IMG/VR virus record: IMGVR_UViG_3300050821_006637
Span: 25,067-89,066 of that record
Direction: 5' to 3' (one strand)
From: a virus
DNA length: 64,000 bases
Under the pieces are notes generated by a model. That model was not told the origin of the DNA and did no database searches. It was given only the letters and a program-made list of their open reading frames with translations. Position numbers and translations under genes: made by a program. Of this stretch, positions 1,043-41,651 are shown in pieces; position 1 is the first letter of the stretch, and each line of letters starts with the position of its first letter.

Positions 1043-2834
1043 GCTCAAATTAGCTCTGGCACAATTTGGAAACTCCTACGGAGGACAGCAGGCGTTGCCC
1101 TTGAGCGTAGGGTGTCTGTGGTCTTACGCCAAGAAGGAAGGTTTGAGCACGGAATATGAAAATCCTGTCTTCCTATACAAAAAGGAAGCAGTTTCCAAGG
1201 TAGTGGCTAGAATACCTGAGGATGTAGATATAGTAGCCTTTTCGGCTTATATTTGGAACTGGAGGTTTTCAAGGGCTGTAGCGGAGGCGATTCTTGAAAA
1301 GTCACCCAAAGCGGCTATCGTCTATGGCGGCGTTCATGTACCAGACTCACCGACAGAGGAGTGGTGGCAACAACATATAGAATGTGACTATGTGCTGCGA
1401 GGAGAGGGGGAACTCTCCTTTGCTTCTTTTCTACAACAATTCGCAGCAAAGGATTCACAGAGAGACTGGAGCAAGGTGCCAGGGCTGTCCATACGGGGAT
1501 TAAATACAGAGAGGAAACAACCACCAGTAAATGATTTAACTAGTCCCTATTTGGACGGAACGTTTGACAGTCTTCTTCCCTTGGAAGAGAAATGGACAGG
1601 CTTGCAAGAATCCGATCGTGGATGTCCCTACTTTTGTTCTTTCTGTATGTGGGGCGATTCTGCTCTCAACAAAATACGCCAGTTTCCTATGAATAGAGTA
1701 ACGGAAGAGATAACTTGGTTCGGCAAGAATCGTGTGGAATTTGTTGAGGGAGCGAATGCTAACTTTGGAATCTTACCCAGGGATGTACAGATAGCCGAGC
1801 ACCTGGCTAAGACGAAAGAGAAGTACGGATTCCCACAGAAATACAGAGCCGCCTTCGCCAAGTATTCCAATAAGAGAATAATGGACCAAGTCTTTTCTGT
1901 CGCCTCTATTCTCAATAAGAGCGGACAACTCAAAGCCGTCACCCTCGCTCTGCAAAGTACAGATGATGGAGTATTGGAATCTATTGATAGAAAAAACATC
2001 TCAATGTCTGGTTTCCAAGAGTTGCAGGAAAGATATAAGAAAGATGGAATCCCCACTTATATAGAATTAATCATGGGTCTGCCTGGGGAAACTTACTCCT
2101 CCTTCAAGGCAGGTATAGATAAAATCCTCAATGCAGGAGGACATGAAGGACTCTCTATCTACCAGTGTGTGATTCTTCCTAATTCTGAGATGGACAACCC
2201 AGAATATATTAAGAAGCACGGGCTCCAATCTGTCCCTATGCGGGCGATGCTCCTCCACGGAACTCCAAATAAAGAGTGTCCAGATGAGGTGCAGGAGACT
2301 GTCATCGCCACGAATTCTATGCCACACGAGGATTGGAAGAAGACGTGGTTTCTGTCCTGGGCTTTACAGACCTTTCACTCTACTCACTTAACCCAGTGGT
2401 GGGCAAAGGAGCAGAGTGCCCTTGGCACGCCCTATTCGTGCTTCTACGAGCGTTTGATAAGGACAGCCGAGCAGTGGCCCGAGTCGGTGCTCGGGCGTGT
2501 CTATGCCCATACCAGTGCGTTGCTTGAGGCGGCGATTCAAGGAGGTAGTTGGGACAACGTCCTTCCTGGATTTGGGGACATAAGTTGGCCTCCGGACGAG
2601 GGAGCCTTCCTTATGATTGCCAAAGAACTCCATCTATTCTACAGCCAGATGAAACTTCTAAAAGATATGCCTGTCCAGCAGTGGGAATATGGACCTCCCG
2701 AGATTCCCCAAGGGAAGGAAGAGGCATATGGAAAGGTATTCTGGTACTCACGTAAAGGTGACTTGATTGGAAGTTTGAGAAAGTTCATTGAGGAATGTAA
2801 AGAGGAAAGTAAGAGGAGACTCTGTGATGACTAA
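1035..2834 (+). CDS. B12-binding-domain radical SAM protein
   Basis: The 599-residue protein has an N-terminal Rossmann-like region with features of B12-binding radical SAM proteins (IVYGGVHVPDSPTEE and CDYVLRGEGE near residues 95-125). A radical SAM core follows, with C197-x3-C201-x2-C204 in GCPYFCSFCMWGD, which holds the 4Fe-4S cluster that cleaves S-adenosylmethionine. The later segment YIELIMGLPGET is typical of the same barrel. A clear DxHxxG cobalamin motif is not visible, so B12 may be bound base-off in another way or not at all. The substrate cannot be deduced. Its position between a glycosyltransferase and a nucleotide-sugar dehydrogenase suggests modification of a sugar or glycan. 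The start overlaps the upstream gene by 8 bases. Confidence 0.85.
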   Translation: MSKLKLALAQFGNSYGGQQALPLSVGCLWSYAKKEGLSTEYENPVFLYKKEAVSKVVARIPEDVDIVAFSAYIWNWRFSRAVAEAILEKSPKAAIVYGGVHVPDSPTEEWWQQHIECDYVLRGEGELSFASFLQQFAAKDSQRDWSKVPGLSIRGLNTERKQPPVNDLTSPYLDGTFDSLLPLEEKWTGLQESDRGCPYFCSFCMWGDSALNKIRQFPMNRVTEEITWFGKNRVEFVEGANANFGILPRDVQIAEHLAKTKEKYGFPQKYRAAFAKYSNKRIMDQVFSVASILNKSGQLKAVTLALQSTDDGVLESIDRKNISMSGFQELQERYKKDGIPTYIELIMGLPGETYSSFKAGIDKILNAGGHEGLSIYQCVILPNSEMDNPEYIKKHGLQSVPMRAMLLHGTPNKECPDEVQETVIATNSMPHEDWKKTWFLSWALQTFHSTHLTQWWAKEQSALGTPYSCFYERLIRTAEQWPESVLGRVYAHTSALLEAAIQGGSWDNVLPGFGDISWPPDEGAFLMIAKELHLFYSQMKLLKDMPVQQWEYGPPEIPQGKEEAYGKVFWYSRKGDLIGSLRKFIEECKEESKRRLCDD

Positions 2835-4548
2835 ACCGATTATCGGGTTCCTTGGCGTCGGCAAATTAGGTTTGCCTCTGGCTGTCTCTATCGCTATGAA
2901 GGGACACAAGGTTCTGGCTTATGATGTGAATCCAGGCTTGATGAAGAAGCAAATCTGGCCTCATAGAGAGACTGGACCCGACGGAACTGGAGACTTCCAA
3001 CCTTACTTGGATTCTGCAGATATTACTTTCTGTCCGTTAAAAGAGGTCGTGCAGGGAAGTGACATTATTTTCTTGTGTGTGCAGACGCCACACGGAGCGG
3101 AATATGAAGGCATTACGAGGTTGCCGTTTTCTAGGGCAGACTTTGACTATAAGTATCTAAGAGAAGTCGCCCAGCAGGTATCTGAGTATGTTACGCCTCA
3201 ACAAGCTGTATCTGTCATCTCTACGGTACTTCCAGGTACGATGAGGAGAGAAGTTCTTCCCTTTTTGCCAGAGGCAGTCTATAATCCTGCTTTCCCTGCT
3301 ATGGGGACTGTGATGAGGGATTTTTTAGAGCCGGAGTTCATCCTCTTGGGTGGGACACCTGGTCCGTCTGTCACAAAGCTCAAGGACTTCTATTTCCATC
3401 TACTCAATAGGTTCTGTACTGTGATAAGTATTGAAAGTGCAGAATTGTCCAAGTGTGCGTACAATACTTTCGTATCTATGAAAGTGACAGTCACCAATAT
3501 GCTGGCAGAGGTAGCCCATAAGATACCTGGGTGCAATATAGATGAAGTGAGTAGGGTTCTCACGTCTGCGACGAGGAGGGTTTGTTCTCCTGCTTATATG
3601 CAAGGAGGGATGGGAGACGGCGGAGCGTGTCTAGCAAAAGGAACCCTTGTTCGGGTACGAGACGGATGGAAAGTAATAGAACAGATACAGCCTGGGGAGT
3701 GGGTTCTGGGTCTAAATGAGAAGACAAATGAGCCAGCTTGGAATTGTGTGGAAAAGGCTATCTGTAAGGGTAAACAGCAAGTCCTTCGTGTCAAGTTTGA
3801 CGACACGGAAGTGAAAGCCACACCAGACCATAAGTTCTTTGTCTCTCTGGGTGCTGCTCCCCATAATTGGATGAAATTGGAGGATACAATCACCAGGAAG
3901 AATGTCGGTGGGCAATATGTAGAAGGACACCGATTTTTGGGGATTAGATTGCTGGATGAACGTCCGTTTCTAATTGAATCTTGCTCTATGAAAAATGACG
4001 TGACAGCGGAGGTGTGGGATTTGTATAATGCATGTCCCCATCATAACTTCTATGCCAATGGTATCTTAGTTTCAAATTGTCATCCCAGAGACAATATCGC
4101 TATGTCCTGGCTCGCAGAAAAGTTGAAACTTTCTTCTAATCTTTTTGACAAAGTGATGGAAGCCAGAGAATGGCAGACGGAGTGGTTGGCAGACCTTTTC
4201 TGTACACACGGAAAAGATATGCCGAAGTATCTCCTCGGCAAAGCCTACAAAGCCGATAGTGCTATCGTTGCTGGTTCTGCATCTGTCCTCCTTGCCAACA
4301 TCCTCTACGAAAGACAAATAGACTTCGCACATTGGGACCCCTATATTGACATAGATGACGAGGATGAGGTAGGGGAGTTCCCAGTTAAGAATCCCTTTGC
4401 AGAAGAGAAAGCGTGCTTCTTCATCGGCACACAGCATTCTATCTTTCGAGAATATAAGTATGCTCCAGGTTCTGTGATTTTAGACCCATTTAGATATATC
4501 CCAGAACAACCAGGAGTAAAGATAATACCAATAGGAGTAGGGAGATGA
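2827..4548 (+). CDS. Nucleotide-sugar (UDP-glucose/GDP-mannose type) dehydrogenase containing a mini-intein
   Basis: The host protein has a GxGxxG NAD-binding loop (G10, G12, G15 in FLGVGKLGLP), STVLPGT, an ESAELSKCAYNTF helix with the family lysine, and a catalytic cysteine in the split motif GGA/CHPRDN. Such enzymes oxidise a nucleotide hexose twice to the uronic acid. A 150-residue intein sits between GGA and the catalytic Cys, so the 573-residue precursor would splice to about 423 residues, normal for the family. ATG 2827 was chosen because AGGAG precedes it and it overlaps the upstream stop; an upstream in-frame TTG at 2788 is less likely. UDP-glucuronate production for the neighbouring glycosyltransferase is a plausible role. 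Confidence 0.88.
   Translation: MTKPIIGFLGVGKLGLPLAVSIAMKGHKVLAYDVNPGLMKKQIWPHRETGPDGTGDFQPYLDSADITFCPLKEVVQGSDIIFLCVQTPHGAEYEGITRLPFSRADFDYKYLREVAQQVSEYVTPQQAVSVISTVLPGTMRREVLPFLPEAVYNPAFPAMGTVMRDFLEPEFILLGGTPGPSVTKLKDFYFHLLNRFCTVISIESAELSKCAYNTFVSMKVTVTNMLAEVAHKIPGCNIDEVSRVLTSATRRVCSPAYMQGGMGDGGACLAKGTLVRVRDGWKVIEQIQPGEWVLGLNEKTNEPAWNCVEKAICKGKQQVLRVKFDDTEVKATPDHKFFVSLGAAPHNWMKLEDTITRKNVGGQYVEGHRFLGIRLLDERPFLIESCSMKNDVTAEVWDLYNACPHHNFYANGILVSNCHPRDNIAMSWLAEKLKLSSNLFDKVMEAREWQTEWLADLFCTHGKDMPKYLLGKAYKADSAIVAGSASVLLANILYERQIDFAHWDPYIDIDDEDEVGEFPVKNPFAEEKACFFIGTQHSIFREYKYAPGSVILDPFRYIPEQPGVKIIPIGVGR
3628..4077 (+). mobile_element. Mini-intein (150 aa, no endonuclease domain) in the dehydrogenase
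   Basis: The segment starts with Cys (CLAKGTLV, block A) and shows block B as TPDH. It has a block F-like stretch (VWDLYNACPHHNFYANG) and ends VSN before a +1 Cys. This is a class 1 splicing arrangement: C1, the TxxH histidine, a terminal Asn and a Cys at +1. The usual penultimate His is Ser, which occurs in some active inteins. At 150 residues there is no room for a homing endonuclease. The +1 residue is the catalytic Cys of the dehydrogenase, so the enzyme cannot work before splicing. Removing the segment restores a continuous GGACHPRDN motif. Confidence 0.9.
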
Positions 4549-23034: not shown

Positions 23035-24096
23035 ATGCAGGCAACAAAGAGAACTGGTGTTTATCTTTGGAAGTGCTTAGTGTCTGGGAAATGTTATGTT
23101 GGAAGTGCTTCTATCTCTTTTAAGGACAGGAAGAAGAGTCATTTAAGTGATTTACGAAGGGGAATTCATTATAATCGGTATTTTCAGGCTGCTTGGAATA
23201 AGTATGGTGAAGACACGTTTGAGTATTGGGAATTAGAAGTATGTCCTCCAGACCAGTGTATTGAAAGGGAGCAGTATTGGCTAGATTTGTATCAGGCAGC
23301 TGATTCTAGATATGGGTACAATTTATCCCCAACTGCTGGAAACTGCCGTGGCGTCATAAAAAGTGAGGAGGCAAGAGCCAAGCATTCCGTATTGATGAAG
23401 AAAAGATATGAAGACCAAGAAGAAAGAGAAAAAACAAGGCTCTGCACAAAAGAGGCATATGACGACCCTGGGTTAAGGGGAAAGATTTCTCAAGCAGTAA
23501 GAGCAGCAAATGAACGACCAGGGATTGTAGAGAAAAGGGCTGCTGCGGTTAAAAAGTCTTATGAGGACTTCCCTCTTCGTAAGAAAAAGAAGGCTGAAGA
23601 AGGTCTAGAGAATTGGAATAAGGCAACAGAAGAGGAGAAGAAAAGTCGGTTATCTGGTCTTGTTGCTTGTTGCACGGATCCAGAACTCAAGAAGAAGAAA
23701 ACTGAAGCCGTTCGTGCTGCTTGGGAAAATAAAACAGATGAAGAGAAAGCGGCTTACGCAGAAAAGAAAAGAAAAGATTTATCCAGTCCAGAGGTAAGGA
23801 AGAGGATTTCTGAAGGATGTAAGAAAGGCTGTGCTATACCAGGACAAAAGGAACGGAAATCTAAAGCCACTGCCGAAGGATGGAAAGACCCTGAGAGTAG
23901 GGCGAAGAGGATAGAAGGGCTTAAAAGAGCCGCTGCCACTAATAAGAAAGCGGCGGAAAAGCGTGTCGCAGGGATTAAAGCAGCCTGGGCAGACCCTGAG
24001 AAACGAGCGAAGCGGTTAGCGGCTATTAAAGAAGGTTGGGCGAGAAGAAGAGAAAGATTAAAAGAAGAGAAAACCAAGGTTCCAAAGGATGAATAA
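23035..24096 (+). CDS. GIY-YIG homing endonuclease with repeated NUMOD-like DNA-binding motifs
   Basis: The N-terminal 95 residues form a GIY-YIG nuclease: TGVYLWKC then CYVGSAS, a conserved Arg in SFKDRKKSH, a Tyr in NRYFQAAWNKYG, and the catalytic Glu in CIEREQYWLDLY. The rest (about 110-353) is a basic chain of roughly 25-30-residue repeats of the type W-x-D-P-E-x-R-A-K-R. These resemble NUMOD3 motifs that read DNA in homing enzymes. It starts after TATAGGAGACAATC. The end overlaps the protease gene by 8 bases. It is free-standing, with no intron visible around it, so it probably spreads by cutting phages that lack it at this site. Confidence 0.88.
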   Translation: MQATKRTGVYLWKCLVSGKCYVGSASISFKDRKKSHLSDLRRGIHYNRYFQAAWNKYGEDTFEYWELEVCPPDQCIEREQYWLDLYQAADSRYGYNLSPTAGNCRGVIKSEEARAKHSVLMKKRYEDQEEREKTRLCTKEAYDDPGLRGKISQAVRAANERPGIVEKRAAAVKKSYEDFPLRKKKKAEEGLENWNKATEEEKKSRLSGLVACCTDPELKKKKTEAVRAAWENKTDEEKAAYAEKKRKDLSSPEVRKRISEGCKKGCAIPGQKERKSKATAEGWKDPESRAKRIEGLKRAAATNKKAAEKRVAGIKAAWADPEKRAKRLAAIKEGWARRRERLKEEKTKVPKDE

Positions 24097-30015: not shown

Positions 30016-31482
30016 ATGGCTGCTCCTACTTTTGAGACGGTAGCCCTGGCCACCCAGCAGAACGGCGAGGCTATCCAGTCGTTGAATAAAACCCTCGGGA
30101 CTGTTGTTGATAAACTCTCCCGTATGCCAATGCCCGGACAACCGACGCCGGAACAAGCATTCGGTACTCCTTGGATTCGTAATGGTGAGAGTTCTTTGGA
30201 TGACTCCAGAGGCTTCTCCTACCTCAAAATGATTGGGCACATCGCTGGCTTCGTCCCAGACGAGCAGTGCAAGCATGAGCGGAACCTCGCCATGAGAATG
30301 GCGAAGTGCCTCTATGCGGATGCTGGCAACGACGGCTATCAGTGGGCTTCTCAGAATCGCCTTGGTGAGAAGAAATTCCTCGCTCCACTCGCTCCTAACT
30401 TCCTCCAGGACAACTTCGTTGACCGGAGCTTCCGTCGTGAGATGAAGCAGATGGTCGCCGCAGGGACGGACGGAGCCGACCTGGGAGAAGCGAGCTGGAT
30501 TAAGCGAAAGATGCTTTCCCAGCAATATGGGACGAAAGCCCTTTCTTGGTTGAATGAACTCACTGGTGGTGCTATCGTCGCTCCGCCTGAGATGGGTGAG
30601 TTGATTGAACTTCTGAGAAATAAAGAGGCTCTGGTCAATGCAGGAGCCAGAGTTGTTCCTCTACCTCCACAGGGTAGATTAAAGTATCCTCGCCAGACTT
30701 CTCCATCCAATACCTTCTGGGTTGGTGAGAACTCTCCTATCACAGAATCCATCGTCGGTACTGGTGAGATTACTCTGCAAGCTAAGAAGCTCGCAGTCCT
30801 CATCAAGGCACCGAACGAGTTGATTCGTTTTGCCTCACCTGCGGCAGAGGCGTTGCTCCGAGACGATATGACGAAGAGTTTGGCTCTTGGTTTGGATTTG
30901 GCTGGATTAGAGGGACAGGGGAGTGACGTCAAGCCTCGCGGTGTGATTAACTATCCTGGAATCAACAGAATCCAGTCCTCTCAGATTGGTGTTAACTCTG
31001 GTGGTGTGGTAGTTGGACAGGACATCTACCGAATGATTGCTGCGGTAGAGGAAAGTGACGCGGAGTTCGAAGCGTACATCATGCGTCCGAAGACTCTGTA
31101 TAAGTATTATCAGCTGCGAGCTGATGCCGTCGTGGCGGGTGATGCGGCTGGTCCGTATCTGTTCAACCTGATTAGAGAGGCACAGGATGACACGCCCGCT
31201 TCGTTGGCTGGTTATCCCGTGGTGAAGTCGACTCAGGTTTCTCAGACTCGTTCCTATGCGGCTGCGACAAATCTGACCTATGTGGTTGGTGGAATGTGGA
31301 GTGATATGCTCATCGGTATGTTCGGTGCGATTGAGTTCGCGGCGACCACGATGGGTGACACCGCTTTCGTCAATGACCAGACGTGGGTGCGTGGTATTCT
31401 GTCGGCGGACGTGCAGTTGAGGCACGAGGCGGCGTTCGTTTTACTTGACAATCTCAACACTCTAGTTACGGCGGCAAGCTAA
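30016..31482 (+). CDS. Major capsid protein, HK97 fold
   Basis: The 488-residue protein follows the protease/scaffold gene, as expected. The C-terminal half shows HK97-gp5-like landmarks: AEFEAYIMRPKTLYKY (P-domain spine), SLAGYPVVKSTQVS, WSDMLIGMFGAIEF, and a terminal strand DVQLRHEAAFVLLDNL. The first 130 residues (helical, ending near FLQDNFVDRSF) could be a delta-domain removed by the protease. A 138-base spacer with a long hairpin separates it from the homing nuclease gene. The assignment is from fold-level sequence pattern and position. Confidence 0.85.
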   Translation: MAAPTFETVALATQQNGEAIQSLNKTLGTVVDKLSRMPMPGQPTPEQAFGTPWIRNGESSLDDSRGFSYLKMIGHIAGFVPDEQCKHERNLAMRMAKCLYADAGNDGYQWASQNRLGEKKFLAPLAPNFLQDNFVDRSFRREMKQMVAAGTDGADLGEASWIKRKMLSQQYGTKALSWLNELTGGAIVAPPEMGELIELLRNKEALVNAGARVVPLPPQGRLKYPRQTSPSNTFWVGENSPITESIVGTGEITLQAKKLAVLIKAPNELIRFASPAAEALLRDDMTKSLALGLDLAGLEGQGSDVKPRGVINYPGINRIQSSQIGVNSGGVVVGQDIYRMIAAVEESDAEFEAYIMRPKTLYKYYQLRADAVVAGDAAGPYLFNLIREAQDDTPASLAGYPVVKSTQVSQTRSYAAATNLTYVVGGMWSDMLIGMFGAIEFAATTMGDTAFVNDQTWVRGILSADVQLRHEAAFVLLDNLNTLVTAAS

Positions 31483-31620: not shown

Positions 31621-32508
31621 ATGAGTTCTATTACAGGGACGCTTTCTAAGGAACTTTGGAATCACAGACGGGACGTCATTATTTCTCGTTTCCAAACAGA
31701 CGACCCGAAGGATATTGCTAGAGACCTTGGTATGGATTGGACGAGTGTATATCGTTGGGCACGAAAACTAGGTATTGCTCCTAAAGGCAATGTCCGTCGC
31801 GCCCATCGCAATCAGTCCTGCAACATCCATTACTTTGACCAGTGGTCGCCAAATATGGCATATATCCTGGGGTATCTTTTTGCAGATGGCTCAGTTACGG
31901 AAGCTGGTGTAACGGCAGATGCTACTGAAAGTGACAAAGGTATTTTAGAATTCATCAAGGCGGAAACTAATTCGGTTTTGTCTATCAAAACATATGCCGG
32001 TACAAACGGGACGAAGACTTATTGTAGGATTCATCTTAATAGTAAGGTTATAAGAAATAAGCTGGTTGAGTTAGGAATGAAGCCCTCTAAAACATACTTA
32101 GATGATCCGTATCCAAATGTTCCAGAAGAATTAAATGGACACTTTGTTCGGGGATTCTTTGATGGAGATGGGAGTGCTAGTAAAGACGGAACTGAGATTA
32201 AATTTATAGGAACCATTAAATTTATCCGGGGTCTAATTGGCTCTCTTGTTCAATTAGCTGGTATGAAAGAAGCCAAAATCACTAAGTTTCTAGGAGAAAG
32301 AGCTACTTGGTGTGTTGTTCATTGGCACCACCGAGATGATATTGAAAGATTTTACCGTCACATTTATCCTGTAGACGGTTACGGGTTCTGTTTGGAACGT
32401 AAGCGGGCTAGGTTGGCGGGACGGCTCGCGAGACCTTATCGTGTCAATTGTGTTCCGCCGGCTTTTAGACGCAAAGGAGGGATGGCTGAATGTCAGCAAA
32501 TCTCTTAA
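31621..32508 (+). CDS. LAGLIDADG homing endonuclease, 295 aa
   Basis: Two LAGLIDADG helices are present: YILGYLFADGSV (81-92) and HFVRGFFDGDGSA (about 177-189). The acidic residue at the end of each coordinates metal in the cleavage site. The N-terminus carries a helix-turn-helix (DIARDLGMDWTSVYRWARKLGI, 31-52). A double-motif protein of this length acts as a monomer. GGGAGACTGAA precedes the ATG, and the 3' end overlaps the next gene by 19 bases. It is free-standing beside the major capsid gene, a frequent site for phage homing nucleases. Confidence 0.9.
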   Translation: MSSITGTLSKELWNHRRDVIISRFQTDDPKDIARDLGMDWTSVYRWARKLGIAPKGNVRRAHRNQSCNIHYFDQWSPNMAYILGYLFADGSVTEAGVTADATESDKGILEFIKAETNSVLSIKTYAGTNGTKTYCRIHLNSKVIRNKLVELGMKPSKTYLDDPYPNVPEELNGHFVRGFFDGDGSASKDGTEIKFIGTIKFIRGLIGSLVQLAGMKEAKITKFLGERATWCVVHWHHRDDIERFYRHIYPVDGYGFCLERKRARLAGRLARPYRVNCVPPAFRRKGGMAECQQIS

Positions 32509-35217: not shown

Positions 35218-35919
35218 ATGCTGTGGACTAACCTCACCAACTTGAAAAGTTTACTGGAGATAGACCAGAATGATAACAGCCAAAACTGGCTCCTCAATCA
35301 TTTTAATGAGTGGGTGACGGATATATTAGAAACTTTACTCAACAGAAAATTCACCTATGCGACGAGGACGAGGTATCTGCAAGGCTCTGGTATCATCAAA
35401 CTCCTCTACCCCTTCCGTCCCCTCTACCCCTTGGCACCGCCACCCCAAGCAGCGAGTATGCCCTTTAGCACGCTTACAGTAGCCATAGACCAGCAGGGAA
35501 ACTTTGGGGAAGCCGTTGGTGCCTTTGCAGGCACTCCCCTTATCTATGGCACAGATTACTGCCTTAAAATAGACCGAGATGATGGGGGAAGTGATGAGGC
35601 AATCCTCTATATGGTCGGTGGTTACTGGCCTCGTCCCGTCTGTCGTCAACCAGGACTCCTTTCCTCTTTCATCGGAACGGATTTAGGAAGTATTCAAGTA
35701 ACGGCGACAGCGGGGTATACGATTGACACTCTCCCTGCTCAATTGAAGATGGCAGCGGAAATGATGGTTGCTAGATTGGCGTATATTATGCCGTTAGGAA
35801 TGGAGACTACTTCCGAGAGTTACATAGATAGAAGCATTGCTTTGAGTCCCGAGGACAGGGACTATCTATATGGGATGGTGAAACACTTAGTTTGGCAGTT
35901 TCGGAATTGGAAGTTTTAG
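35218..35919 (+). CDS. Head-tail connector (gp6-like adaptor), 233 aa
   Basis: The N-terminal helices (LTNLKSLLEIDQNDNSQNWLLNHFNEWVTDILETLLNRKF) match the layout of gp6-like adaptors: a short helical bundle that counts residues 'LK..L.I...D..D..L...I..A...IE..L.R'. The C-terminal segment (LPAQLKMAAEMMVARLAY) is the second typical helix. A long loop lies between them. Such adaptors form a ring below the portal. Position after head genes and before tail genes supports the role. GAGGGAAGAATAA precedes the ATG. Confidence 0.65.
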   Translation: MLWTNLTNLKSLLEIDQNDNSQNWLLNHFNEWVTDILETLLNRKFTYATRTRYLQGSGIIKLLYPFRPLYPLAPPPQAASMPFSTLTVAIDQQGNFGEAVGAFAGTPLIYGTDYCLKIDRDDGGSDEAILYMVGGYWPRPVCRQPGLLSSFIGTDLGSIQVTATAGYTIDTLPAQLKMAAEMMVARLAYIMPLGMETTSESYIDRSIALSPEDRDYLYGMVKHLVWQFRNWKF

Positions 35920-35940: not shown

Positions 35941-36366
35941 ATGCCTCTTAAAAAAAGAAACCAACACGTATTTCATCGTCGCCTGTATGCAGGTGAATTA
36001 GAGAAGGTCATCCTCCTGAAGCGGCTTGATGACCAGAATGAGGGGAGTGTAACGGCTTATCAACTTTTCCAATGTAGGAGAGGGAATATCACTAAGAGCG
36101 GTGAAGCCATTTACAAGGACACGGGTGCCTTCACTTATCTTCAATGGTTGATACCTTGCACAGAGCTGAGAAGGGTTGGAGTCAACTACCTCAATGTGTT
36201 GGATAGAATAGTAGACCAATTTGGGATGTTCTGGCAATCGGAAAGCCCTGAAACAATCACCCTGGCAATCTTTGACAATTATTATGTTATCCCAGCAAGG
36301 AGGGTTGACCCATATCCAAATGAAATTTTAGTTGGCATCCCTGGCATTGAGCTTCCGTTACCTTAA
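35941..36366 (+). CDS. Probable head-closure or tail-completion protein, 141 aa
   Basis: The protein starts with a basic patch (PLKKRNQHVFHRRLYAGELE) and continues as a small beta-rich fold (KVILLKRLDD, LFQCRRGNI, ITLAIFDNYYVIPARRVDP). Its length, charge and place directly after the adaptor resemble head-closure proteins. No firm family motif is visible. Its last 4 bases overlap the end of the opposite-strand GIY-YIG gene. Confidence 0.5.
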   Translation: MPLKKRNQHVFHRRLYAGELEKVILLKRLDDQNEGSVTAYQLFQCRRGNITKSGEAIYKDTGAFTYLQWLIPCTELRRVGVNYLNVLDRIVDQFGMFWQSESPETITLAIFDNYYVIPARRVDPYPNEILVGIPGIELPLP

Positions 36367-37313
36367 TCTGGTAGTGGTCGTTTCTTTTTCTTTCGCATCC
36401 ACGGCTTCAAAGAAGGGGTAGTAAGTGCTTCCAGCATATCCCAACCTGCTACTCGAACTCGATACCATACGTTGTCGTAATTAACCTTGTAGATTTCACA
36501 CCATTCTTTCAAACACTTTGTTTCTCCATTAATAGTATATTGAGCGGCACTCTTCTTTCTATGAGAATCCTTCACTTTTTGGCTTCTTTTGGTTTCGTAT
36601 TCTTGGTATGCTTCCGGGTTCTCTTTCAATTTGTCACGCCATTTGTGTTTACTAGAACCTTCCCCACCAAAAGGAGTTGTTAATGCTCGCTTTAAATCCC
36701 ATTTCATCCATAGCCTCCACTTTACCAAACCAAAATCTAATCCATAGGCTTCACACCATTCTGGTAGCGTTTTAGTTACTCCGTCTATCGTATAAGGTTT
36801 AGATAGAAATCTTTTCTTTCTATTCTCCAACATTGCCTTTCGTTTAATCGGGTCTTGCCAAGCCTTTTTAAGCCCTTCTGATAGAGACTCACTTGCCTTT
36901 CTTCTATTTTCAGGGTTAGAAAAGCGTTTTGCGGCTGCTTCATTTGACTTTTTTAATCTGATTTCCGTCCAAAGGTGGTTTTGATTAGTCCGCACTAAAT
37001 CCAAATCAGAATTGAGAATAAATCCTCTGCCCAACTCTTTTAAGAATTTCTGCTTACAAAGGAATTCTTGAAACTCCACTACATTGGGATGACATCTTCT
37101 ATATATGATAGGAGAGAATGACTCACTATACTCATTCCACATCTTTTGTAGACGTGGGGTTGTGTGCTTGTTCCTTCTCAATTTAGACAGATGCTCATTC
37201 CACCTATCTCGAAATCCTCTCTCAAAGAAGACCCCACCAATATAAACATATCTCTCACCTTCCACCCAAAACTCAAGCAAATATACCCCTGTTTCAAATA
37301 GTCTCATTGCCAT
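36363..37313 (-). CDS. GIY-YIG-type homing endonuclease on the opposite strand, 316 aa
   Basis: The N-terminus reads TGVYLLEF...YVYIGGVFFERGF with RWNEHL downstream, the GIY-YIG core. A helical linker with an SNPENRRKASES repeat follows. Two copies of a DNA-binding repeat come next (YTIDGVTKTLPEWCEAY... and YTINGETKCLKEWCEIY..., each ending in W...AL.TP). This repeat is frequent in phage-borne nucleases. GGAGAAA precedes the ATG. The gene is inserted head-on into the structural operon, abutting the 3' end of the previous gene, which is typical of a free-standing homing element. Confidence 0.82.
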   Translation of the reverse strand: MAMRLFETGVYLLEFWVEGERYVYIGGVFFERGFRDRWNEHLSKLRRNKHTTPRLQKMWNEYSESFSPIIYRRCHPNVVEFQEFLCKQKFLKELGRGFILNSDLDLVRTNQNHLWTEIRLKKSNEAAAKRFSNPENRRKASESLSEGLKKAWQDPIKRKAMLENRKKRFLSKPYTIDGVTKTLPEWCEAYGLDFGLVKWRLWMKWDLKRALTTPFGGEGSSKHKWRDKLKENPEAYQEYETKRSQKVKDSHRKKSAAQYTINGETKCLKEWCEIYKVNYDNVWYRVRVAGWDMLEALTTPSLKPWMRKKKKRPLPD

Positions 37314-37480: not shown

Positions 37481-39982
37481 ATGTTAATCGGTCCCTTTCA
37501 ACTACTTTCCGGCTCTGTACAGAGTGGCAATACAGGGAATTCTGCCATTCTGTCGGGGAATCTCGGCAGTGGGCAGATAGGAAGTTTCCATCTGGCCAAC
37601 GGAGCCGTATTGAGTGGAGATGTTGGACTCTTAGCTATCTCCAGTGGGAATCTCGGCACCCAAATCATCGGTGTCGTCCACATCCAATCTGGGGGACTAG
37701 GAAGCGGAGCACTCGCTTCCGGTGCTATCACCCCACTCCTCTTTAGTGGACTAATCGTCAATCAATCGGGTTCCATCACGTCGGGACTCCTTGCTACGGC
37801 GAGTACGACAGCAGCAGTGGCGAGTGGAAACATTGCTAGTGGCTCTGTCGGTGCCGTACACTTCGCTAGTGGCATCAATTTCCTCTCTTCAGGGAGTGTG
37901 ATAAGTGGCTACCTGGGTTCAGGCTCCGTCAACAGCGGAGCCATATCAAGTGGCATCATCGCTTGGTTTAACTTGTCCTCTGGAGCCGTTCGTTCAGGCA
38001 ATCTGGCTCAAGGCTCCGTCTACAGCGGAATTTATGCCCCTGCCAGCATCGGTACTATTCATGTTATCAGCGGAGGATTCCTGTCCGGGGCATATGGAAG
38101 CGGACAAGTCGGTCCGTTCATCCTTTCGTCAGGGGCGGTACAATCGGGCAATATCAGCAATAATGCCGTTCTGTCAGGGAACATCCAGGCTGGTCAGATA
38201 TCTACGCAACATATCCAATCAGGTGGCTTTGCGAGTGGAGCGTTAGCGAGTGGAACTTTACTCGCCAATCAATTCGGTTCTGGGATTACTTTCGTCGGCA
38301 GTGGGTCGGTAGGCAGTGGAAGTTTAGCTTTCAATTCGGTGTTATCTGGGAATATTGCCAGTGGGCAGATAGGTTCTTTCCATCTGGCGAATTTCTCTGT
38401 TCAAAGTGGAGACATAGCAAGTGGAGCAGTTACATCGTTTGGGATTGCATCTGGTCAAATTTCTACTCTTCTGGTTGTTAGTGGTGGCTTCGGTTCTTCA
38501 GCGTATGGCAGTGGGTCGGTCGGGCGGTTCACACTGGCACCTCTTTCGGTTTGGTCGGGGGCTCTTGGCTCTGGGTCCGTTACCTCCGGTATTATTGCCA
38601 GCGGTTCACTCGGCTTATCCCAAATTGTTAGCGGGGGTATCGGTAGCGGGTTACTATCTTCCGGAAGCGTCGGAAGTATCTTCCTGGGTGTCGGAGCTGT
38701 TCTATCAGGAAATGTTGGCTCAGGTGCAATTACAAATTTCCAAATCGCTTCAGGAACGATTGGAACGCTTTCCATCGTTAGTGGAGGACTCGGCAGTGGT
38801 TCCATCGCTAGTGGAACACTAACAGCTTTCAACTTCGCCAGTGGAGCCACCTTCCTCTCAGGCTCCATCGGTCCTGCTCAACTCTCCAGTGGTTCCGTCG
38901 GTAGCGGCGTCGTCGCCTCTGGTGCAATCCAAGGAGCCTCCGCCTCTGGTGCTAGAAACATCGCCTCTGGCACGATTGGATTCTTTGACTTAGGAAACGG
39001 AGTAATCTTATCTGGAACGATAGGAAGCGGACAACTAACGAACTTCCACATCCAATCCGGTGGCTTTACGAGTGGTGCCTATGCTCTCTCTTCCATTATT
39101 GGATTGAATCTCGCTAGTGGTTCTGTTGGAAGTGGGAAGTTCGGCTCTGGTGCTATCCAGGCTGTGAATCTAGCCAGCGGCATCATCAATATCAATCAAA
39201 TCTCCTCTGGTGGACTCCAGTCTGGGAGTATTGCCAGTGGAACATTGACTCTGCTCAATATGGTGAGTGGATTCTCCATTCCACTTTCTGGTTCTATCAA
39301 CACGACGATGATAGGGTCTGGGGCTATCAATTCTGGGCAGATAGCTCCAGGTGCCGTATTTGGGACGGCTATTTCTGGTTATCCTGCATTGATATTTGCT
39401 GGCTCCATAGGTCCGAATGAACTGGGAAGCGGAGCTGTTACGAGTGGAGCGATTGCCAGTGGACAGGTAGGTCTCTTCGCTCACGCTTCGGGCGTCACCT
39501 TCTCTGGTGGACTACCTCTGGGAGTCATCACTTCCGGCTTACTTGGTTCTGGCATAGTAGGACAGATTCACATTGGGCAGCCTATCTATCCCTATTTTAC
39601 GATGACAGCAGGGGAAACGATTAGTGGCTTTACCTCCGTGGCGATTTTGAGTGGTGGTGTAGCAGGAAACGCCAATGCGGCGAGTGGATTAAGACTCCCT
39701 GCGGTGGGATTCTGTGCAAGTGGTGCAGTTTTCGGTTCTCTAGTTCAAGTCTATACTGCGGGTCTTTTCACTACTTTGAGTGGTGTCCCTTGGAGTGGAA
39801 ATAATGGAAGGACTCTTTACGTCGGCTCTGGTGGGAGTATAGTCCTTGCCAGTGGTTTGACTTCTGGTCAAGGATGGCAGAGGTTCGGTGTCGCCACGAG
39901 TGGTGGCTTAGTCGTAAATATTGACACTAGCGTTACTTCGGGCGGAATCCAGTCACCAATTGCTGGTGGAGGATTCTTCTAA
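37481..39982 (+). CDS. Gly/Ser-repeat fibre-like protein, 833 aa
   Basis: About 700 residues consist of a repeat near 10 residues long with the pattern I-x-S-G-x-hydrophobic-G-S-G (for example SGNIASGQIGSFHL, GSGAVTSGAIASGQ). This strict alternation of small and hydrophobic residues predicts a beta-helix or triple-stranded fibre shaft rather than a collagen helix, since GXY triplets are absent. The last 150 residues lose the repeat and look globular (YFTMTAGETISGF, GRTLYVGSGG), possibly a trimerisation or receptor tip. A stop codon lies 9 bases upstream, so the ATG is fixed within a few codons; the ribosome site is weak. A tail or head fibre is the best guess. Confidence 0.65.
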   Translation: MLIGPFQLLSGSVQSGNTGNSAILSGNLGSGQIGSFHLANGAVLSGDVGLLAISSGNLGTQIIGVVHIQSGGLGSGALASGAITPLLFSGLIVNQSGSITSGLLATASTTAAVASGNIASGSVGAVHFASGINFLSSGSVISGYLGSGSVNSGAISSGIIAWFNLSSGAVRSGNLAQGSVYSGIYAPASIGTIHVISGGFLSGAYGSGQVGPFILSSGAVQSGNISNNAVLSGNIQAGQISTQHIQSGGFASGALASGTLLANQFGSGITFVGSGSVGSGSLAFNSVLSGNIASGQIGSFHLANFSVQSGDIASGAVTSFGIASGQISTLLVVSGGFGSSAYGSGSVGRFTLAPLSVWSGALGSGSVTSGIIASGSLGLSQIVSGGIGSGLLSSGSVGSIFLGVGAVLSGNVGSGAITNFQIASGTIGTLSIVSGGLGSGSIASGTLTAFNFASGATFLSGSIGPAQLSSGSVGSGVVASGAIQGASASGARNIASGTIGFFDLGNGVILSGTIGSGQLTNFHIQSGGFTSGAYALSSIIGLNLASGSVGSGKFGSGAIQAVNLASGIININQISSGGLQSGSIASGTLTLLNMVSGFSIPLSGSINTTMIGSGAINSGQIAPGAVFGTAISGYPALIFAGSIGPNELGSGAVTSGAIASGQVGLFAHASGVTFSGGLPLGVITSGLLGSGIVGQIHIGQPIYPYFTMTAGETISGFTSVAILSGGVAGNANAASGLRLPAVGFCASGAVFGSLVQVYTAGLFTTLSGVPWSGNNGRTLYVGSGGSIVLASGLTSGQGWQRFGVATSGGLVVNIDTSVTSGGIQSPIAGGGFF

Positions 39983-40032
39983 GATAAACGTAAAGTTTGA
40001 TTTCAAGTAAACTAGAAATGGGAGACAGAGGA

Positions 40033-40964
40033 GTGATTCGTCCTCAATCTTCGGTGTATCTACGTGTGCGATATACGGGTGCTTGAGTAGATACATGAAG
40101 GATTAGATAAGGAGGAAGCCTGTGACTCGGCAGTATTTCATTCGCTAAGAGTGCCTTCACACGGCAACGTGTGATGTGAACTTGGCTGTTTGCGGGAAAA
40201 ACCGAGTATCCTAATCTACCAGAACTTGCCACCACGGAGACGGGGTAAAAAAGATTAGGTGCGGTCAATCCGCAGGGAAGACGTGGCTGTCCCCTCAACG
40301 ACTAAACGCCAAGCACCCTTAAACCCGAAGGGTGATGATATAGTCTGGTCTGTATGGCGACATACAGAGATAGGCAGAAATGACCTATCCCCGAAAAGGG
40401 TAACAAGAACGAAACGGCGAAACTATGGTCGCAGTGAAAGGGAATGCCAATTCCCTGATTGCGAATACCACGCAACTGGGACTCTCCCAAGATGCTATTT
40501 CAGTTACTGAATATTGGAATTTGGATGACATCGGTGTCGATGCTTATGGCAATACAGGAAGACCAAATCCACCAGACAGACAGGTTTTCGGTGGCTATGC
40601 TGCCATAGAAATGAATTTAGTCCATTATGATGTAGGCATACTCCAAGAATGTATCCGTCTCTCTTGGGGCGGTGCTCCTGCAGAAGGACAACAAGCACGA
40701 GCAGGAACTCTTTATGGAGGGAATGTTCCCCTCTATAATCCAGGGAATTTCTATATCAGTGTGGGGGTTTCCTCGCCTGTAGGTGGAATACCTTGGACAT
40801 TCTTAGCTTGCACCCTAAGTGAACGTCCTTTCGTGTACCCTCTAGGCACGAAAAGAAGTGTTGTGGTTCTAAGATGGGATGCTATCGCTTATTCTGTTGA
40901 CCCCTGGAATGGTGGAACTGGTTCGCTGGGTGTTCCCGTTTATACACATCAACTTTTGGTCTAA
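40033..40964 (+). CDS. Tail-tube-like protein gene interrupted by a group I intron (exons 40033-40080 and 40428-40964)
   Basis: Exon 1 encodes about 16 residues (VIRPQSSVYLRVRYTG) from a GTG at 40033 that follows GGAGACAGAGGA; an in-frame ATG at 40018 is the alternative. Exon 2 resumes with VAVKGNANS and runs to 40964. Joined, the 194-residue protein aligns with the next gene's product: VYLRVRYTGV with MVLVRFAFGV, QLGLSQDAISV with ELGLTQDPITV, and EMNLVHYD with EFNLVHYD. Two such proteins directly before the tail assembly chaperone are in the canonical place for major tail (tube) proteins. Without splicing the first frame stops at TGA after RYTGA. The exact 3' junction (after G40427) is inferred from this alignment. 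Confidence 0.78.
40081..40427 (+). ncRNA. Self-splicing group I intron without ORF, about 347 nt
   Basis: The conserved helices can be drawn. P1: exon TACGGGT with guide GCCTGTG (40118-40124), ending in a U-G pair at the splice site. P3: CTTGGC 40181 with GCCAAG 40308. P4: GCGG 40192 with CCGC 40270. P5: ACCG with CGGT, extended by CCTAATC 40210 / GATTAGG 40253. P7: GACTA 40300 with TAGTC 40341. P8: CACCCTT 40314 / AAGGGTG 40328. P9: TCTGTATG 40349 / CATACAGA 40361, capped by a GCGA tetraloop. P9.1: GATAGG / CCTATC. CAACGACTA and ATATAGTC are the usual core R and S elements. No reading frame for a nuclease is present. The 3' end (G40427) is less certain than the 5' end. Confidence 0.9.
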
Positions 40965-41651
40965 ATGGGTCGTGCATATCAAATCTTTGGCGAGGCGATG
41001 GTTTTGGTTCGCTTCGCCTTTGGGGTTCCCTATCCTGATGGGACAGACCCTGAATTCATTGGTCCTAATGTCTGGGAACTAGGACTAACACAGGACCCGA
41101 TTACTGTCACTCCAAACTTCTATTACAAAGATATAAATATTGATAGTTTCGGTCCAAACGTCCCTGCTGATGTCCTCTCTCAGATAGCCGATGTGACGAT
41201 AGAGTTCAACTTAGTACATTATGACCCTGATGCTATTGCTTATTATCAAAGAGAGAGTTTAGCGGGTGGCGGTGCAGGGTTTGAAGACACAGATACACAA
41301 GGAAAGGTTACTTATGCAGGAGAGCCTTTGGGTGGGGGGATTCCCCTCTACGAAGCAGGAAATGCTTTTGTAGGATTGGAATTCTCTAATTTGAGTTTAG
41401 ATAGTTCTCCTGTCACATTCCCAGCTACCTATCTAGTTGACCCGCCTGTAAAATATAAAATCGGTACGAAAAGAACGATTTTCGAGTGTAAAGCACGCGC
41501 CCTCCCCTATGCCCCATTAACCCTCCAATCTGGTTCCTATACTAGTTACTCAAATACATCATCGAATCCAATTATCACAAATTTCAATTACTACACTATT
41601 CCTATTAATGGGAATATTTTGGTAACGAGCACAGACCTAGAAGATCTCTAG
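40965..41651 (+). CDS. Tail-tube-like protein, intron-free paralogue, 228 aa
   Basis: It begins right after the stop of the intron-split gene (TAAATGG). It shares with that gene the pattern VRFAFGV, WELGLTQDPITVTPNFYYKDINIDSFGPNVP, IEFNLVHYD, GGGIPLYEAGN and KIGTKRTIFECKARALPYAP. The extra residues lie at the C-terminus (SNPIITNFNYYTIPINGNIL). The duplicated pair ahead of the chaperone gene suggests tube proteins or one tube and one tail-terminator-like subunit. No family name can be given from sequence alone. Confidence 0.65.
   Translation: MGRAYQIFGEAMVLVRFAFGVPYPDGTDPEFIGPNVWELGLTQDPITVTPNFYYKDINIDSFGPNVPADVLSQIADVTIEFNLVHYDPDAIAYYQRESLAGGGAGFEDTDTQGKVTYAGEPLGGGIPLYEAGNAFVGLEFSNLSLDSSPVTFPATYLVDPPVKYKIGTKRTIFECKARALPYAPLTLQSGSYTSYSNTSSNPIITNFNYYTIPINGNILVTSTDLEDL

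What the first reader, a model, noticed from the sequence alone, without database searches (positions are those of the whole stretch)
40033..40964. Group I intron splits a tail-tube-like gene
A compact intron with all main helices (P1, P3-P5, P7, P8, P9 with a GNRA loop) interrupts a tail gene after codon 16 (or 21). Splicing restores a protein that aligns end to end with the intron-free paralogue next to it. Without splicing the first exon runs into a TGA, and exon 2 looks like a gene with an arbitrary internal start. Automated annotation would almost surely miscall exon 2 as a complete gene and leave 40000-40425 empty. The intron has no ORF, so it depends on another nuclease for mobility or is an immobile relic.
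Basis: partly seen in the sequence, partly recalled or inferred. Interest (0 to 1): 0.82.

Follow-up and report, generated by a model that had tools for sequence, protein, structure and literature searches.

The report
Group I intron in phage tail-module gene

Summary
The intron is real. Rfam's group I model scores 88 bits (cut-off 50, E 4e-21) at 40125-40367. P1, P3-P9, the G-binding pair, a GNRA-capped P9 and an ORF-less body are all present. The 3' site (40427/40428) is probably wrong. A 23-nt P9.1 element is shared exactly with 26 other loci, and in these relatives the last intron base lies about 11-14 nt after GUAACA. The dinucleotide before it covaries with the P9.0 partner (15 of 21 loci; 0 of 5000 shuffles reach this). 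The RT-PCR-tested Baka tail-gene intron follows the same spacing (PMC3706429). That puts the 3' site after G40411, giving an intron of 40081-40411 (331 nt). In the exon-2 frame the only ordinary start codon is then GTG40064, whose Shine-Dalgarno is weak, so the gene's N-terminus stays open. 'Tail-tube' is not shown: no family, PDB or usable fold match, only position and a 33%-identical neighbour. Precedents are Baka/Minerva minor tail genes and Twort orf142. Verdict: new member of a known kind.

The parts
40064..40080 (+). Exon 1 coding part under the preferred model (GTG start, MCDIR + GT of Val).
   Evidence: Only canonical start in the frame that joins 40080 to 40412; weak Shine-Dalgarno GGUG (-3.0 kcal/mol); GTG40033 has a better one (-7.3) but is in frame only with a 3' site at 40427
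40081..40411 (+). Group I intron, 331 nt, no ORF (preferred boundaries)
   Evidence: RF00028 hit, P1, family rule for the last intron base
40125..40367 (+). Catalytic core matched by Rfam RF00028 (P2 to P9)
   Evidence: 88.0 bits, cut-off 50, E 4.2e-21
40074..40080 (+). P1, exon strand UACGGGU; the last U is the 5' splice site
   Evidence: 7 contiguous pairs with 40118-40124, U.G at the site; best of all U/G pairings scanned
40118..40124 (+). Internal guide sequence GCCUGUG
40181..40186 (+). P3 5' strand CUUGGC (pairs with 40308-40313 GCCAAG)
   Evidence: Rfam alignment and sequence
40191..40274 (+). P4 (UGCGG 40191-40195 / CCGCA 40270-40274) with P5 and a 60-nt P5 extension
   Evidence: Rfam alignment
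40300..40345 (+). P7 (GACUA 40300-40304 / UAGUC 40341-40345, with the guanosine-binding G-C pair) around P3' and P8 (40314-40320/40328-40334)
   Evidence: Rfam alignment; no P7.1/P7.2 insert between P7 and P3'
40349..40368 (+). P9, UCUGUAUG-GCGA-CAUACAGA, GNRA loop
   Evidence: sequence and Rfam alignment
40369..40391 (+). P9.1 element GAUAGGCAGAAAUGACCUAUCCC
   Evidence: identical in 21 viral and 5 bacterial-genome loci and in the LysYB1 phage capsid-gene intron
40390..40411 (+). P9.2 (CCC/GGG), GUAACA motif (40400-40405), P9.0 3' strand AC (40409-40410) and the last intron G (40411)
   Evidence: spacing rule 11-14 nt; P9.0 covariation 15/21, 0 of 5000 shuffles reach it; P9.2 covaries across 22 sequences
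40412..40964 (+). Exon 2 (reads NGETMVAVKG...THQLLV, stop TAA)
   Evidence: ORF 40425-40964 extended to 40412 in the same frame
40965..41651 (+). Intron-free paralogue, 228 aa
40054..40096 (+). 10-bp hairpin pairing exon 1 (40054-40063) with the first intron bases (40087-40096), covering the GTG40064 ribosome-binding region in unspliced RNA
   Evidence: about 1-5% expected by chance (own estimate); no conservation test possible
36363..37313 (-). Free-standing I-TevI-like GIY-YIG homing endonuclease gene, 2.8 kb upstream; possible but untested mobility partner
   Evidence: 28.8% identical to a phage I-TevI-like endonuclease over residues 9-161; phrog_3377

Best explanation
A compact, ORF-less, self-splicing group I intron (40081-40411, 331 nt) sits within the first few codons of a tail-module gene of an uncultured tailed phage. 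The RNA folds into the standard ribozyme. A guanosine bound at P7 attacks after U40080, which the guide sequence at 40118-40124 holds in P1. The freed exon then attacks after G40411, which P9.0 positions, and the joined message encodes about 189 aa related to the next gene. Until splicing, ribosomes that enter the intron stop within a few codons (TGA 40084 or TAG 40088), which keeps them off the ribozyme. Shown: fold, conserved core, family membership, P1, P9.0 and the 3'-end rule. Inferred: actual splicing, the start codon, and the protein's role. The intron carries no endonuclease; it is either immobile or moved by one of the phage's free-standing homing endonucleases.
For: RF00028 88 bits, E 4e-21. 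Seven-pair P1 with U.G at 40080/40118, best in a scan of all U/G positions. P9.1 identical in 26 other loci, several in recognisable interrupted genes: NrdE-like in L042 and L044, an NrdJ-like gene in L043, phage LysYB1 major capsid. In LysYB1 the junction GT|A reproduces SPO1 gp6.1 (YGVPVMYAPKK) without a gap, with the last intron base 12 nt after the GUAACA start. In Baka the last intron base (28450), in a tail-gene intron whose splicing RT-PCR confirmed, lies 11 nt after it (PMC3706429). P9.0 covariation 15/21, and the window gives a Watson-Crick GU/AC at 12 nt. P9.2 covaries. Exon 2 from 40412 reads NGETMV against the paralogue's IFGEAMV (VNGET p 0.0026 against random window peptides).
Against: Joining 40080 to 40412 puts exon 2 in the frame of GTG40064, whose Shine-Dalgarno is weak (-3.0 kcal/mol). 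The better GTG40033 (-7.3) is in frame only with 40427. Whole-length alignment to the paralogue does not separate the two models (160.5 against 159.5-165) and the preferred one needs a 9-residue gap. No intron-free relative of the gene was found. No clear P10. No expression data.
Confidence: 0.72

Rival explanations
1. One reading: the same intron but with the 3' splice site after G40427 (ATG|GTC), exon 1 starting at GTG40033 or ATG40018 and reading MIRPQSSVYLRVRYTG|VAVKGN.
For: The only in-frame choice for GTG40033, which has a good Shine-Dalgarno (-7.3). Aligns to the paralogue without the 9-residue gap (score 165 with ATG40018). P9.0 GU/AU wobble is possible.
Against: The last intron base would lie 28 nt after the GUAACA start, against 11-14 nt wherever P9.0 fixed it and in the Baka intron. 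Only a wobble P9.0 pair. The exon-1 similarity to the paralogue is weak (p 0.02-0.06). It would make the GGCGAAACTATGG / GGCGAGGCGATGG match to the paralogue a coincidence.
Confidence: 0.2
2. 5' splice site after U40037 with ATG40018, giving MGDRGVI|NGETMV, the same length as the paralogue's N-terminus, with 40038-40117 as a long P1 extension.
For: Equal-length, ungapped N-terminus against MGRAYQIFGEAMV; 40031-40128 folds as a long hairpin (z -2.5 for 40028-40130).
Against: No P1 of even 3 contiguous pairs with a U.G at 40037, whereas the calibrated relatives have 5-6 pairs and the window has 7 at 40080.
Confidence: 0.05
3. Immobile or dead intron: the ribozyme no longer splices and the gene is translated from ATG40425 alone.
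For: ATG40425 opens a 179-aa ORF that a gene caller would accept. No RNA data.
Against: All core helices and the G-binding site are intact, and the score is in the range of other phage and bacterial introns scored here (58-91 bits). ATG40425 has almost no Shine-Dalgarno (-2.1).
Confidence: 0.03

Closest known systems
Mycobacterium phage Baka/Optimus/Minerva minor-tail-gene group I intron (PMC3706429; JF937090, NC_026584)
   Same: ORF-less group I intron in a tail-module gene. P7-P9-P9.1 domain similar by sequence, same GUAACA 3' end, last intron base 11 nt from the GUAACA start, no insert between P7 and P3'.
   Different: Different gene and different site (internal, not at the start codon), high-GC host; 265 nt against 331; splicing shown by RT-PCR there.
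Lysinibacillus phage LysYB1/LysYB2 major-capsid-gene intron (OP628075, OP628076)
   Same: Best DNA match in the phage collection (86.6% over 77 nt), identical P9.1, 12-nt GUAACA-to-last-G spacing, U at the 5' site in ACGGG(G)U, GT|A junction.
   Different: Capsid gene, near its 3' end; has an insert between P7 and P3'; a feature annotated as similar to an HNH nuclease lies just downstream.
Staphylococcus phage Twort orf142 introns (stated in PMC11878797 to be a tail tube gene, with exon skipping)
   Same: Group I introns in a tail structural gene.
   Different: Exon skipping between introns is reported there; not compared by sequence here.
Introns in NrdE- or NrdJ-like genes of Metabacillus, Lederbergia and Filobacillus (L042, L044, L043)
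   Same: Identical P9.1 element and 3'-end architecture; L042 and L043 match RF00028.
   Different: Bacterial-genome contigs, reductase-like genes; gene names are my reading of the translations.

Membership tests
Group I catalytic intron (RF00028) | Conserved core P3-P8 with sequence and structure match above the curated cut-off | tested here: met
   88.0 bits against cut-off 50, model positions 1-253 of 253
Group I catalytic intron (RF00028) | P1 between the end of exon 1 and an internal guide sequence, with U.G at the 5' splice site | tested here: met
   UACGGGU/GCCUGUG, 7 pairs, U40080.G40118
Group I catalytic intron (RF00028) | G-binding site in P7 and a terminal G | tested here: met
   GACUA/UAGUC; last base G40411 by family rule and P9.0 covariation
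Group I catalytic intron (RF00028) | Self-splicing with guanosine | not testable with these tools
   needs in-vitro splicing or RT-PCR
Group I subgroup IA | P7.1/P7.2 insert between P7 and P3' | tested here: not met
   only AAC lies between GACUA (40300-40304) and P3' (40308)
Mobile (homing) group I intron | Encoded homing endonuclease | tested here: not met
   no endonuclease ORF inside 40081-40411
Collaborative homing with a free-standing endonuclease | A free-standing endonuclease that cuts the intron-free site | not testable with these tools
   GIY-YIG gene at 36363-37313 is a candidate; no intron-free allele found
Phage tail tube protein | Sequence or fold match to a tail tube family | tested here: inconclusive
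   no PHROGs, Pfam or PDB match; AlphaFold2 model unusable, pLDDT 34. Gene order (after connector and fibre-like genes) is compatible only

The most novel reading that the evidence does not exclude
The intron sits so close to the start codon that splicing gates translation. In unspliced RNA the first intron bases pair with exon 1 (40087-40096 with 40054-40063) over the ribosome-binding region of GTG40064, and removing the intron frees it. Alternative use of the two possible 3' sites (40411, 40427) would also switch between two N-termini and start codons.
Probability: 0.08. Interest if true: 0.5.

Novelty: new member of a known kind. Interest (0 to 1): 0.25.

Why it matters
It adds one well-supported case to a known pattern: group I introns in phage virion genes that gene callers miss. 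The useful by-product is a rule for this intron family: last base G, about 11-14 nt after the start of GUAACA, with its two preceding bases pairing to bases 3-4 after P7'. The rule places 3' splice sites without an intron-free relative and here corrects the predicted junction by 16 nt.

Tried and rejected
Homologues of the gene or its paralogue: none in viral contigs (single proteins and profile), genome contigs or phages. Neighbouring proteins as bait: none. Major capsid bait found relatives, but the contigs of the same virus group are too short to reach the tail genes. AlphaFold2 with two sequences: pLDDT 34, not used for a fold search. PDB profile search: nothing. Near-identical intron core elsewhere: none. 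Intron in plasmids: none. Plain folding of the region does not recover the ribozyme fold, as is usual for pseudoknotted ribozymes. The 5' site at 40037 was rejected for lack of P1. Protein similarity and exon-1 codon usage were tried as tie-breakers between 3' sites and were not decisive. A literature search for Twort orf142 did not give the primary text, so that precedent rests on the statement in PMC11878797.

Full report
Observation. cmscan of the whole window gives one group I intron match, full length for the RF00028 model, at 40125-40367 on the plus strand (88.0 bits, cut-off 50, E 4.2e-21). It is the only one in the 89,066-base virus record the window comes from. The sequence shows P3 (40181-40186/40308-40313), P4, P5 with a 60-nt extension, P6, P7 with the G-binding pair (40300-40304/40341-40345), P8 and P9 with a GCGA tetraloop. 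There is no endonuclease reading frame inside. There is no insert between P7 and P3', so it is not a subgroup IA intron in the usual sense.

5' splice site. Scanning every U from 40020 to 40130 against every downstream G for a P1 helix gives one outstanding candidate: UACGGGU (40074-40080) with GCCUGUG (40118-40124), seven contiguous pairs with U.G at the site. An alternative at 40037, attractive at protein level, has no P1 at all.

3' splice site. The closest phage hit is the major-capsid-gene intron of Lysinibacillus phages LysYB1/2. The P9.1 element GATAGGCAGAAATGACCTATCCC, shared exactly with it, was then searched in two collections and found in 21 viral and 5 bacterial-genome contigs. In nearly all of them P9.1 is followed by a variable hairpin (P9.2, which covaries), then GUAACA and a short run ending in G. 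Two cases can be calibrated. In LysYB1, joining ...TACGGGGT to ACCAGTT... after GTAACAAACCTG gives RWMILLYGVPVLYAPKK, co-linear without gaps with intron-free SPO1 gp6.1 RWMILMYGVPVMYAPKK. In phage Baka, splicing of the tail-gene intron was confirmed by RT-PCR, and the published junction puts the last intron base at 28,450 (PMC3706429, section read); that base lies 11 nt after the start of GUAACA. Moreover, the two bases before the last G pair with bases 3-4 after the P7 3' strand (P9.0). Among 21 other loci, 15 have a Watson-Crick match with the last G 9-14 nt after the motif start; reshuffling the partners gives 3.9 on average and never reaches 15 in 5000 trials. In the six others the fixed-offset test fails: in L035 the pair is a G-U wobble at 11 nt, and in Baka itself the two C bases pair one base earlier (GG); L023, L024, L028 and L043 have no match in range. 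The window has GU after P7 and GUAACAAGAAC-G, so AC pairs with GU and the last intron base is G40411, 12 nt from the motif. I therefore place the intron at 40081-40411 (331 nt).

What this does to the gene. Exon 2 then begins AAACGGCGAAACTATGG and reads (V)NGETMVAVKGN; the paralogue reads IFGEAMVLVRF, and the DNA match GGCGA..C.ATGGT supports homology up to the junction (VNGET p 0.0026). Exon 1 in that frame has a single ordinary start codon, GTG40064, with a weak Shine-Dalgarno. Whole-protein alignment to the paralogue does not separate the models. Alternative 3' splicing is not excluded.

The protein. The gene lies downstream of a major capsid protein (30016-31482, Pfam Phage_capsid), a head-tail adaptor-like protein (35218-35919, phrog_442) and a fibre-like 'SG'-repeat protein (37481-39982), next to its paralogue and before further unassigned genes. 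A tail structural role is likely; which one is open. No relative of the gene itself was found in any collection searched.

Mechanism and mobility. Ordinary two-step guanosine-initiated splicing is the best explanation; activity itself is inferred. Stop codons just inside the intron in both candidate frames (TGA 40084, TAG 40088) would stop ribosomes before the core. With no internal endonuclease, spread would need a separate nuclease; a free-standing I-TevI-like GIY-YIG gene lies 2.8 kb upstream, but no link to the intron site could be tested. A 10-bp hairpin between exon 1 and the first intron bases might couple splicing to translation; predicted pairing of the ribosome-binding region falls after splicing. 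A match of this size is expected by chance in roughly 1-5% of such sites (own estimate), and no relatives exist to test it.

Comparison with the known. [quoted passage not shown] A capsid-gene intron of phage LittleE is proven too (PMC3706429). [quoted passage not shown] The window's intron is a new member of that known kind, in a previously undescribed gene and at an early position in it.

Noticed in passing
window 31621-32508 (+); L002: LAGLIDADG homing endonuclease gene between the major capsid gene and the next gene. In the near relative L002 (91% DNA identity over the capsid gene) the two flanks (window 31475 and 32490) lie about 50 nt apart, so the roughly 1-kb insert is absent there: presence/absence of a free-standing HEG next to a capsid gene.
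   Followed up: partly
window 2788-4548 (+): UDP-glucose dehydrogenase-like protein interrupted by an intein-like stretch (roughly residues 287-440, CLAKGTLVRV...NGILVSN), without an obvious endonuclease domain (sub-cut-off Pfam Intein_splicing match).
   Followed up: no
window 23035-24096 (+): GIY-YIG homing endonuclease gene (Pfam GIY-YIG, phrog_314); with the others this makes three free-standing HEGs, an intein-like insert and an intron in one 64-kb stretch.
   Followed up: no
L020-L045: The exact P9.1 element GATAGGCAGAAATGACCTATCCC marks what look like group I introns in many unrelated phages and in some Bacillaceae- and Clostridia-type contigs; most of these loci score below Rfam's RF00028 cut-off, so the standard model misses them.
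   Followed up: partly
L015 2252-2539: Lysinibacillus phage LysYB1 (OP628075): the annotated major capsid CDS ends inside an unannotated group I intron, so its likely true C-terminus (VLYAPKKWMRFRNIKAELYNGVI) is missing from the record.
   Followed up: yes
window 37481-39982 (+): 833-aa protein made of degenerate SG-rich repeats (SGAIASGxIGS...), similar to phage tail-fibre families (phrog_892, phrog_13518), directly upstream of the intron-bearing gene.
   Followed up: no
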